From positions 1-26,638 of IMG/VR virus record IMGVR_UViG_3300040801_004468: a DNA stretch of 26,638 nucleotides; one strand, 5' to 3'. The notes under the pieces were generated by a model. That model saw only the letters and a program-made list of their open reading frames with translations, made no database searches and was not told the origin of the DNA. A program made the translations under genes and the position numbers. This DNA is from a virus. This document shows positions 13,871-16,760 of the stretch, in pieces (within the stretch, counting starts at the first letter, position 1; each line of letters opens with the position of its first letter).

Positions 13871-15058
13871 TTAGACGTTATTGGCGGCCTGGAAGCCGAG
13901 TTTTACAATGATGTCCTGAGCGTAGCCGACCGGACGGATACGCGCCTCGATGCAGATCCTGCCGGTAGTGATCACGTTCTGCTCCAGGTCGATGTAGGCC
14001 GCAAAGCCACTGATCTCGCCGTTAGCCGTCATAGCCTGGTTTACAGCGCGTTCGATGATGGCCTGGTAGTACTTCGCCAGGGCCGGATCGATGCGCCCCT
14101 GAGCGTCGATAGCGACCTCATCGAGCACCTGCTCGACGTAGGTGACGTAGGCGATGGTAGTAGCCTTATCGATCACGCGCCCGTAGCTGAGCCGTCGGTA
14201 GTCGTCCTGGGAGGAAGTGGCCGTAGGATCGTTGCTGAAGAAGTAGCCCGCCTTACCCTGGTAGGTGCGTAGCGTGACGAAGCCCTTATCGTGGAGGACG
14301 GCAGCCTCGCCCAGGGCTTGCTCTACTGGCTTGACGCCAATGAAGGCCGTAGATGTCTTAAGTGCCCCGTCCTTCACGCGCCCGATGTTGCGCTGAACGG
14401 GGATGCGGGCGGCGCGCCCCAGCAGCAGTCCGAGAGCCGCACCGTTGCCGACGGTAGTATCTCCGAGTAGAACGGTGACCCGATTATCCGTGCGCTCGGT
14501 TAGATCGACCAGCCCGCCGAAGTCACCGTCGTAGAACGTACCCTCCAGGAGGACACGAACCGGTTCGTGACTGGCTGCGAAGCCTTCGGCAAGGGCCTGC
14601 GCCTTACCAATGGCCGAAAGAACATCCGCATCGACGTGATCATCCTCGGCGTCGGATGCGTAGCCAGCATCCGGAGAGCGGGTGATGCCCAGTAGCCGAA
14701 TTTTGCCGGCTGCGGCGGTAAGTAGCTGTACGGCGTAGTCGGTTTCAGCCAGGTCGGCCATTGCCGTCAGACCAACCGCCTGGCTTACCAGCATGATCCA
14801 GATACGCGCCCCGTCGCCCGCCTCGGCATAGAACGCCGCCAGGTGGTGGTAGACGCGTACACCGTTTAGCTCGTCGTAGTCGGCATCGATACCCAGCGCT
14901 TCTACGTCCGCCAGACGCGTGACGAGCCGGGGAGTAAGTAAGGAAAGCGAGGTGGCCGCCGGGCCTTGCAGTAGCAGACCGGCCAGACCGTCATCGGTCG
15001 GTACCAGGCCGGGCAGGGCTCCGTTCTGAATTTGAATGTCAACGCCGGGAAGACCCAT
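13871..15058 (-). CDS. Contractile tail sheath protein, DUF2586-like
   Basis: 395 residues when started at the ATG at 15058 (MGLPGVDIQIQNGALPGLVP), which resembles the usual MGLPxVxI start of Bacteroidota sheaths. An upstream ATG at 15127 would add 23 residues. Other marks: LLQGPAATSLSLLTPRLVTR near 30-45, RIWIMLVSQAVG, VRVLLEGTFYDGDF, AFIGVKPVEQALGEAAVLHD, LRTYQGKAGYFFSNDPTATS, and a C-terminal domain (NVITTGRICIEARIRPVGYA). In the DUF2586 family the C-terminal segment is the conserved core of the sheath. The protein contracts on infection. It is the first tail gene downstream of the holin-like gene, after a 157-base non-coding island. Confidence 0.85.
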   Translation of the reverse strand: MGLPGVDIQIQNGALPGLVPTDDGLAGLLLQGPAATSLSLLTPRLVTRLADVEALGIDADYDELNGVRVYHHLAAFYAEAGDGARIWIMLVSQAVGLTAMADLAETDYAVQLLTAAAGKIRLLGITRSPDAGYASDAEDDHVDADVLSAIGKAQALAEGFAASHEPVRVLLEGTFYDGDFGGLVDLTERTDNRVTVLLGDTTVGNGAALGLLLGRAARIPVQRNIGRVKDGALKTSTAFIGVKPVEQALGEAAVLHDKGFVTLRTYQGKAGYFFSNDPTATSSQDDYRRLSYGRVIDKATTIAYVTYVEQVLDEVAIDAQGRIDPALAKYYQAIIERAVNQAMTANGEISGFAAYIDLEQNVITTGRICIEARIRPVGYAQDIIVKLGFQAANNV

Positions 15059-15151
15059 GAGTAGAAGTTGGTGGGATTCGGTGGCTGTTACCCCGACCGG
15101 GAGGCCGGGGCAACTGAAAAACGCCATCGTAGAAAACCAGAATAGAAATAG

Positions 15152-15200
15152 GGCGCGTGGGCGGAATCGAACCGCCCCGGGAGGGCATCACAGCACGCGC
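15152..15200 (-). other. tRNA-like acceptor/T-arm element (truncated or degenerate tRNA)
   Basis: On the minus strand the sequence reads GCGCGTG (15200-15194), 17 bases, then GGCGG-TTCGATT-CCGCC (15176-15160), then CACGCGC (15159-15153). The T-arm has a perfect 5-bp stem, a canonical TTCGATT loop and the full B-box GGTTCGATTCC. The flanking heptamers pair perfectly as an acceptor stem directly stacked on it. The 17-base linker starts CTGTGAT, the form of an anticodon loop for His (GTG), but no anticodon or D stem pairs. No CCA is encoded. It lies in the gap between the holin-like and sheath genes. It may be a tRNA relic, a tRNA-like RNA or a processing signal. Confidence 0.55.
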
Positions 15201-15215: not shown

Positions 15216-15521
15216 CTAGGGCGCGGGGTGGGTACCGCCCTGCTTGGCCTTGTTGGGGATGACGGCATCGAAGATTCGCCGCAGCCAGCGGAAGCCGGCA
15301 TCATCTTTGGTGGTGGGCGTTAGCCGCACGACGACCTCGATGACACCCAGCAGGGCACTGAGCAGGCTTACCCAGTGGAGCAGGATGAACTGCCAGACGG
15401 AAAAGCCCGTCTCGGCCACGTCGGCGGCATCTTCGATGCCGACGCCGGCGTCCTGGGCTACGAGAGGAATGCAGCAGAATAGGGCCAGCAGGCAGAGCAT
15501 GTAGAGCTGGTAACGCTTCAT
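15216..15521 (-). CDS. Holin-like membrane protein with signal peptide
   Basis: A 101-residue protein: a hydrophobic signal-like N-terminus (MKRYQLYMLCLLALFCCIPLVA, cleavage likely before QDAG), a short acidic spacer (IEDAADVAETGF), one membrane segment (FILLHWVSLLSALLGVIEVV), then a charged cytoplasmic-type tail (RLTPTTKDDAGFRWLRRIFD). Small proteins of this build, with the RLTPTxKDD motif after the membrane helix, are common in Bacteroidota phages and are annotated as putative holins. It would permeabilise the inner membrane to release or activate the endolysin. Unusually, it lies in the tail operon while the amidase is in the opposite operon. A structural membrane role cannot be excluded. 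Confidence 0.65.
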   Translation of the reverse strand: MKRYQLYMLCLLALFCCIPLVAQDAGVGIEDAADVAETGFSVWQFILLHWVSLLSALLGVIEVVVRLTPTTKDDAGFRWLRRIFDAVIPNKAKQGGTHPAP

Positions 15522-15857: not shown

Positions 15858-16760
15858 TTAGACGGTTGCGCGGTAGATCATGCCAACCCCCTTGCCATCG
15901 GCGCGGTTAGCACGGCCACTGGCCCGTACGGAGAAGGAGAAGATGTCACCGTAGTACTCGGCCCGACCGTAGTTGTCGTACATGGTGATCTGGCCCAGGT
16001 AGCGCTCCAGGAAGTCCATCTGGTAGAATAGACCGGCGGAGCTGTCCGTGGTGGCGTTGGCCGACTTAGGGTCCTTAGCGTCCAGACCGGCATCCAGACG
16101 TAGCACCTGGCTTTCCTCGATGAGGTTGAAGCCGTAGAGCCGCCCGATGGTACCCTCCTGGAGGTTAACGACCTGCTGGAAGGCATACTTCAGCTTTTCG
16201 TCCAGCATCAGGTGCAGCATCGAGTCGCTGTCCAGGATCATATAGCGACCACGCTGGGGGACGCGCTGCTTGTTGAGCATGGCCCGGGCCATCAGAATGT
16301 CGTTGCCGGTGATGATCTTGCGACCACCGGTAGCACCCGGGGCGGTAGCGTTCTGCCCGGCACCCGTAGCGGCCAGCTTATTGGCGGCCGGAATGTTGCG
16401 GGCGAACTTGTAGAGCAGGTCGAAACCGACGTCTTCGTTGAGCTGGCCCATATTCTCCCGGATTACGCTCATGCGCTTGTTGTAGCTCAGCTCGACCACC
16501 TCCGGGTTGTAGATGCGCGTCGGGTCAGTGGTGAAGATGTCGATCTCTTCGGTCACCGTGTTATCCTCACGCGTCCGGATGGGAGCGGGGAATACCGTGC
16601 GGTTCTTCTCGGTGGGAGCCGGGCCGCCGGACTGGGGGATGTGAATGATCTTACCGTCGATCACCAGGTCATCGCGGTTGGTGACGTAGCGAAGGAAGGG
16701 GTGAGCCTCGAAGAGCGCCTCCTTGATGGTAGGCTGCCAGATTTGGACCTGTACGGCCAT
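15858..16760 (-). CDS. Major capsid protein
   Basis: A 300-residue protein in the capsid position, after the prohead protease/scaffold and before the tail genes. Segments consistent with an HK97-fold coat of the Mu-T / P22-like branch are the N-terminal helix (IKEALFEAHPFLRYVTNRDD), a strand segment (VIDGKIIHIPQSGG), a likely flexible loop near 130-150 rich in Ala, Thr and Gly (AATGAGQNATAPGATGG), the RYMILDSDSMLHLM block, and a C-terminal block (IFSFSVRASGRANRADGKGV) before RATV. It starts at the ATG at 16760, after an AT-rich leader (AAACTTTAACC on the minus strand) in an otherwise GC-rich operon, which may favour strong translation. A short 5+5 palindrome lies at 16795-16806. Confidence 0.85.
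   Translation of the reverse strand: MAVQVQIWQPTIKEALFEAHPFLRYVTNRDDLVIDGKIIHIPQSGGPAPTEKNRTVFPAPIRTREDNTVTEEIDIFTTDPTRIYNPEVVELSYNKRMSVIRENMGQLNEDVGFDLLYKFARNIPAANKLAATGAGQNATAPGATGGRKIITGNDILMARAMLNKQRVPQRGRYMILDSDSMLHLMLDEKLKYAFQQVVNLQEGTIGRLYGFNLIEESQVLRLDAGLDAKDPKSANATTDSSAGLFYQMDFLERYLGQITMYDNYGRAEYYGDIFSFSVRASGRANRADGKGVGMIYRATV

What the first reader, a model, noticed from the sequence alone, without database searches (positions are those of the whole stretch)
15152..15200. 49-base tRNA-like acceptor/T-arm minihelix inside the late operon
A full canonical T-arm (B-box GGTTCGATTCC, 5-bp stem) is flanked by heptamers that pair perfectly as an acceptor stem, but the space for D and anticodon arms is only 17 bases, starting with CTGTGAT. 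The chance of both features falling together is small. It might be a tRNA relic, a tRNA-like transcript processed by RNase P/Z that cuts the polycistronic mRNA between lysis and tail genes, or a decoy of tRNA-acting enzymes.
Basis: seen in the sequence. Interest (0 to 1): 0.6.

Follow-up and report, generated by a model that had tools for sequence, protein, structure and literature searches.

The report
Armless tRNA-like element in phage operon
Between two late genes of a Mu-like phage lies a 48-base RNA element that keeps only the acceptor and T arms of a tRNA; related phages carry intact or similarly cut-down tRNAs at the same spot, with the stems preserved by matching changes, so it is a shrunken tRNA that probably marks where the long messenger RNA is cut, although no RNA data were available to show that.

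Summary
On the minus strand at 15200..15152, a canonical T-arm and a perfect 7-bp acceptor stem enclose 17 nt, giving a 12-bp coaxial helix. Simulations gave no such element. It lies between a small membrane-protein gene and the tail-sheath gene of a Mu-like Bacteroidota phage.

Comparison changes the reading. Relatives carry tRNA-like elements in the same spacer. Four have intact initiator-like tRNA-Met(CAT); L108 and L157 have lost the anticodon loop or arm; three are truncated like the window (L259 53 nt, L106 54 nt, L102 46 nt). L259 is the window's sister in the sheath tree and lacks an anticodon arm.

Truncated forms recur at two other junctions. One matches the mascRNA/menRNA family (28 bits, below cut-off). 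Across four homologous truncated pairs, 20 of 48 base pairs show compensatory two-sided changes and 3 are broken.

So this is probably not a decaying relic. It is a truncated tRNA whose acceptor/T helix is conserved while decoding is lost. The best-supported mechanism, inferred and not shown, is cutting of the late mRNA by tRNA-processing enzymes (RNase P and the 3'-end maturase). Rivals are a neutral relic, a structured leader, or a decoy for acceptor-directed enzymes. New variant of a known kind.

The parts
15194..15200 (-). 5' acceptor strand GCGCGTG
   Evidence: direct sequence, pairs 7/7 with 15153-15159
15177..15193 (-). 17-nt linker CTGTGATGCCCTCCCGG where D and anticodon arms are missing
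   Evidence: direct sequence; intact tRNAs with the same acceptor stem have roughly 40 nt here
15160..15176 (-). T-arm GGCGG TTCGATT CCGCC (B-box GGTTCGATTCC)
   Evidence: direct sequence; 5/5 Watson-Crick pairs
15153..15159 (-). 3' acceptor strand CACGCGC
15152..15152 (-). C at the discriminator position (73), followed by CTA; no encoded CCA
   Evidence: direct sequence
15216..15521 (-). upstream small gene (signal/TM-like protein with E-VVVRLTPT motif); homologs precede the sheath spacer in L259, L102, L106, L176 and Saprospiraceae prophages
13871..15058 (-). downstream tail-sheath gene (DUF2586, PF10758); relatives all start MxLPGV, so ATG 15058 is the likely start rather than ATG 15127
15092..15109 (-). 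second hairpin CCCGGCC-TCCC-GGTCGGG in the same leader; plain hairpins occupy a similar place in relatives without a tRNA-like element

Best explanation
The element is a tRNA gene that has lost its D and anticodon arms but keeps the 12-bp acceptor/T helix. It belongs to a set of full and cut-down tRNA-like elements at operon junctions of Mu-like Bacteroidota phages. Proposed mechanism: it is transcribed inside the polycistronic late mRNA, folds as an acceptor-T minihelix, and is recognised by host tRNA maturation enzymes that measure this helix (RNase P at the 5' side, RNase Z or another 3' maturase at the 3' side). This would separate the upstream small-gene message from the sheath message, or leave the tRNA-like as a protective 3' end on the upstream message. 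Shown here: tRNA signature, sense orientation in a spacer between genes, full tRNAs at the same site in relatives, repeated loss of the anticodon, conserved pairing. Inferred: transcription through the element, cleavage, and benefit to the phage.
For: Same-site full tRNA-Met(CAT): L002 2899-2973, L100 2410-2483, L104 2301-2373, L176 3231-3304. Anticodon loop shrunk in L108, no recognisable anticodon arm in L157. Truncated same-site forms: L102, L259 and L106. In the sheath tree window+L259 are sisters (100/99) and L102+L106 are sisters (98/92), so truncated forms appear in two separate lineages. Truncated forms at other junctions: after the MuA-like transposase in G416 and G419 (56 nt, plus shortened CAT tRNA-likes) and after a homologous small gene (54 and 63 nt). 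Compensatory changes: 20 two-sided, 3 broken of 48 pairs; sliding the 3' partners by 1-3 positions breaks most pairs. T-arms occur in 8 of 150 unique pre-sheath spacers on the sense strand, against a mean of about 1 in shuffles and 1 on the antisense strand. The G416 56-nt element aligns to RF01684 mascRNA-menRNA over its whole length, 28.1 bits; from general knowledge, that RNA is released by RNase P and RNase Z. Bacterial RNase P cleaves acceptor + T-stem/loop model substrates, and also polycistronic operon mRNAs and phage M3 and C4 RNAs (PMC11143913).
Against: No RNA-seq or cleavage data. The window sequence itself is a single copy with no close homolog. About half of the 21-member sheath clade lack the element, so it is not essential. 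The window ends in C-CTA rather than a CCA-like tail, and position -1 is A rather than the commoner U. L259 has a 2-nt bulge and an A-C pair, L102 a short T-stem and L106 a non-consensus T-loop. Several relatives were found by scans that look for pairing, or by eye in the nearest spacers, which inflates apparent conservation. Truncation of window and L259 could be independent.
Confidence: 0.5

Rival explanations
1. Neutral tRNA relic: a former phage tRNA lost its middle by deletion and is simply decaying.
For: Phage tRNA genes are often lost. Two near-identical phages differ by a 5-nt deletion in the D-arm of their tRNA-Met (L094 vs L095). tRNA fragments are common in prokaryotes (PMC9897764).
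Against: All 12 pairs and the T-loop are intact. Truncated forms exist on both sides of a deep split (window/L259, sheath 56% identical) with compensatory stem changes. Homologous truncated pairs in G416/G419 keep pairing through two-sided changes. Fragments left by integration keep only one side of the acceptor stem and are not expected in a transposing phage.
Confidence: 0.2
2. Structured 5' leader: the helix controls translation or stability of the sheath mRNA as a plain hairpin, and the T-loop is only its stable cap.
For: Relatives without a tRNA-like element have other GC-rich hairpins in the same spacer (L003, L004, L017, L018, L039). The window has a second hairpin at 15092-15109.
Against: It does not explain why the element is tRNA-like, why full tRNAs sit there in relatives, or why the acceptor/T helix stays at 12-13 bp.
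Confidence: 0.17
3. Decoy or substrate for enzymes that read the tRNA acceptor/T half (CCA-adding enzyme, T-loop modification enzymes, acceptor-directed toxins).
For: Only the acceptor/T half is kept. Toxins acting on tRNA acceptor ends exist (PMC11559606, PMC10435456), and phage tRNAs have been linked to evasion of tRNA-targeting defences (PMC10264068) (titles/abstracts).
Against: Nothing here links the element to a toxin. Placement at fixed gene junctions is not needed for a decoy. No CCA is encoded.
Confidence: 0.08
4. Chance fold.
For: The fold energy is ordinary for this GC content.
Against: 0 hits in Markov controls; same-site tRNAs in relatives.
Confidence: 0.02

Closest known systems
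mascRNA / menRNA (Rfam RF01684)
   Same: Short tRNA-like with acceptor and T-arm, little or no anticodon arm, inside a longer transcript. The G416 56-nt relative aligns end to end (28.1 bits).
   Different: Mammalian lncRNA element; score below the family cut-off (42.5). The window element itself does not match and lacks even the small D-like arm. No processing shown here.
Phage-encoded tRNAs (Rfam RF00005), here initiator-like tRNA-Met(CAT)
   Same: Same spacer, same strand, same acceptor/T architecture; 18 intact phage tRNAs share its exact acceptor stem.
   Different: No D or anticodon arm; cannot decode; not detected by ARAGORN.
Acceptor-T model substrates of RNase P (AT1 and similar; PMC11143913)
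   Same: Acceptor stem + T-stem + T-loop as one 12-bp helix.
   Different: Model substrates are synthetic; this is natural, with a 17-nt linker and a non-CCA tail.
tRNA punctuation of mitochondrial transcripts
   Same: tRNAs, some of them reduced, lie between genes of polycistronic RNA and are cut out.
   Different: Those tRNAs still decode; these phage forms have lost the anticodon. The phage case is untested.
Phage M3 and C4 RNAs, RNase P substrates of phages
   Same: Phage transcripts with structures cut by RNase P (PMC11143913).
   Different: No relation by sequence was tested.

Membership tests
Canonical tRNA | Acceptor stem and T-arm with consensus T-loop | tested here: met
Canonical tRNA | D-arm and anticodon arm with 7-nt loop | tested here: not met
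   only 17 nt present; ARAGORN 0 genes
Canonical tRNA | Score above the Rfam RF00005 cut-off | tested here: not met
   no gathering match; best weak hit tRNA-Sec 15.4 bits
mascRNA-menRNA (RF01684) | Covariance-model score above cut-off 42.5 | tested here: not met
   window no match; G416 relative 28.1 bits
mascRNA-menRNA (RF01684) | Released by RNase P and RNase Z | not testable with these tools
   no RNA data
RNase P / RNase Z punctuation element (works-like) | 12-bp coaxial acceptor/T helix | tested here: met
   window 12 bp; relatives 12-13 bp with minor defects
RNase P / RNase Z punctuation element (works-like) | Sense strand, between genes of one operon | tested here: met
   no promoter- or terminator-like site found between (weak test)
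RNase P / RNase Z punctuation element (works-like) | Discrete RNA ends at 5' and 3' boundaries | not testable with these tools
   no RNA-seq
tRNA fragment left by integration (att site) | Only the 3' part of a host tRNA, at a prophage end | tested here: not met
   both acceptor strands present; internal to the late gene block; Mu-like phage (Portal_Mu, Phage_Mu_F)

The most novel reading that the evidence does not exclude
Mu-like Bacteroidota phages have turned phage tRNAs into operon punctuation marks that gave up decoding, shrinking in steps (intact initiator-like tRNA, anticodon loop lost, one arm lost, 53-56 nt, 46-48 nt) while the acceptor/T helix stays under selection. The window element would be among the smallest natural substrates of the tRNA maturation enzymes.
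Probability: 0.42. Interest if true: 0.78.

Novelty: new variant of a known kind. Interest (0 to 1): 0.62.

Why it matters
Why phages carry tRNAs is a long-standing question, and most answers assume decoding or evasion of anticodon nucleases. A series of tRNA-likes at fixed gene junctions that lose the anticodon but keep the acceptor/T helix points to a role that needs no decoding. It would be a bacterial-virus parallel to mitochondrial tRNA punctuation and to mascRNA, and it can be tested directly by mapping RNA ends.

Tried and rejected
Exact search for the 3' half in IMG/VR: nothing. Acceptor + B-box pattern in IMG/VR: 18 hits, all intact tRNAs of 70-73 nt, none 48 nt; the same pattern in 396 genomes of the host order: none. 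Sheath as a single-protein query in genome contigs: none; as an alignment it worked. Head protein (15858-16760) query: none. Fold energy as evidence: not significant. Chance hits discarded: L021 31-nt hairpin, L103 and L258 hits inside ORFs, L020 and L041 weak hits. Apparent short forms in tRNA-rich control phages were alternative pairings of full tRNAs or chance AT-rich hits. Considered and rejected: permuted tRNA (the acceptor strands are in normal order) and att-site fragment. Searches were rejected requests. Literature searches found no report of such elements in phages; the library is incomplete.

Full report
What is there. The window is a 26.6-kb IMG/VR phage record with Mu-like head genes (Portal_Mu, Phage_Mu_F) and a DUF2586 tail sheath. 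On the minus strand, 15200-15152 reads GCGCGTG-CTGTGATGCCCTCCCGG-GGCGG-TTCGATT-CCGCC-CACGCGC-C. The acceptor heptamers pair 7/7 and the T-stem 5/5, making one 12-bp stack under a consensus T-loop, with only 17 nt where the D and anticodon arms should be. Simulated sequence of the same composition gave no such element. Tools for full tRNAs miss it. The fold energy alone is unremarkable, so the case rests on the tRNA signature and on comparison.

Origin. A scan of IMG/VR for the same acceptor stem around a B-box found 18 contigs, all with intact 70-73-nt phage tRNAs (Leu, Lys, Gly, Met, Arg). One, tRNA-Arg in L074, matches the window's 3' half at 23 of 24 bases. No other 48-nt form with this acceptor exists in that collection. 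The element is therefore of phage tRNA type with the middle missing.

Same spacer in relatives. The sheath was used to gather relatives, giving 150 distinct sheath proteins with upstream sequence. A T-arm lies within about 320 nt upstream of the sheath, on the sense strand, in 8 of 150; shuffles average about 1 and the antisense strand gives 1. L002, L100, L104 and L176 have full tRNA-Met(CAT); in L100, L104 and L176 positions 1 and 72 do not pair, as in initiator tRNAs. L108 has an intact body but its anticodon hairpin has closed to a 3-5-nt loop, and L157 has no recognisable anticodon arm. L259 (53 nt, D-arm kept, no anticodon arm), L106 (54 nt) and L102 (46 nt) are truncated like the window. 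In window, L259, L102, L106 and L176 the upstream neighbour is the same small gene, with one further small gene between it and the tRNA in L176.

Descent. In a maximum-likelihood sheath tree the window and L259 are sisters (100/99) and L102 and L106 are sisters (98/92). L108 lies close to the second pair and L104 is the outgroup of that clade. Truncated forms thus occur in two lineages and sit on both sides of deep splits (window and L259 sheaths are 56% identical). Full tRNAs are scattered through the same 21-member clade, and about half of the clade lacks any tRNA-like element. Independent truncation in each member cannot be excluded.

Other junctions. Phages G416 and G419 carry a homologous 56-nt element just after the MuA-like transposase gene, followed in each by a shortened tRNA-like with CAT. 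After another homologous small gene they carry 54- and 63-nt elements. The G416 56-nt element matches mascRNA-menRNA end to end at 28.1 bits, below the family cut-off. Some of these elements end about 18 nt before the next start codon, as in L100.

Selection on the stems. Four homologous pairs of truncated elements were compared pair by pair: 22 pairs unchanged, 3 changed on one side, 20 changed on both sides and still pairing, 3 broken. Sliding the 3' strand breaks most pairs. Caveats: the acceptor register was chosen to pair, L259 was scored with its 2-nt bulge removed, and L102/L106 use an 8+4 register. The G416/G419 pairs are the cleanest because their flanking genes fix the homology.

Mechanism. 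What is kept is the 12-13-bp acceptor/T helix; what is lost is decoding. Enzymes that read only this helix include RNase P and the 3'-end maturases. Bacterial RNase P is reported to cut acceptor + T-stem/loop models and some polycistronic and phage RNAs (PMC11143913). Sense placement between genes fits processing of the late mRNA. This is inference: no RNA ends were available. A neutral relic, translation control by a leader structure, and a decoy remain possible, in that order of likelihood.

Corrections. The sheath probably starts at ATG 15058, not 15127, because relatives start at MxLPGV. The leader is then longer (15218 to 15058) and contains a second hairpin at 15092-15109.

Verdict. I found no description of such truncated tRNA-likes in phages in the papers searched, but that library is incomplete.

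Noticed in passing
L002 2899-2973, L100 2410-2483, L104 2301-2373, L176 3231-3304, L041 3722-3795, L061 478-550, L134 1410-1484: Mu-like Bacteroidota phages repeatedly carry tRNA-Met(CAT), many with unpaired 1:72 as in initiator tRNAs, beside the sheath gene or elsewhere in the late operon.
   Followed up: partly
L137 1428-1501: A tRNA with an initiator-like body whose anticodon loop reads AAA instead of CAT.
   Followed up: no
L090 13753-13903: Two tandem tRNAs in the phage of L002 with 6-nt and 8-nt anticodon loops (ARAGORN cannot assign them).
   Followed up: no
L094 4326-4398 and L095 472-539: Two near-identical phages differ by a 5-nt deletion in the D-arm region of the same tRNA-Met.
   Followed up: partly
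L093 13967-14079 (minus): A 112-nt expanded tRNA-like with a CAT-containing stretch just after the MuA-like transposase gene in a close relative of the window (L003's phage).
   Followed up: no
L102 about 2325-2380; also the L106, L108 and L302 pre-sheath spacers: A shared CTCGGCGCGYGGGTT-like sequence starting a hairpin upstream of the tRNA-like element.
   Followed up: no
L018 and L039 just upstream of the sheath: Hairpins whose loop contains the stop codon of the upstream gene.
   Followed up: no
window 15058 and 15127: The likely sheath start is ATG 15058; the upstream ATG 15127 adds 23 residues not seen in relatives.
   Followed up: yes
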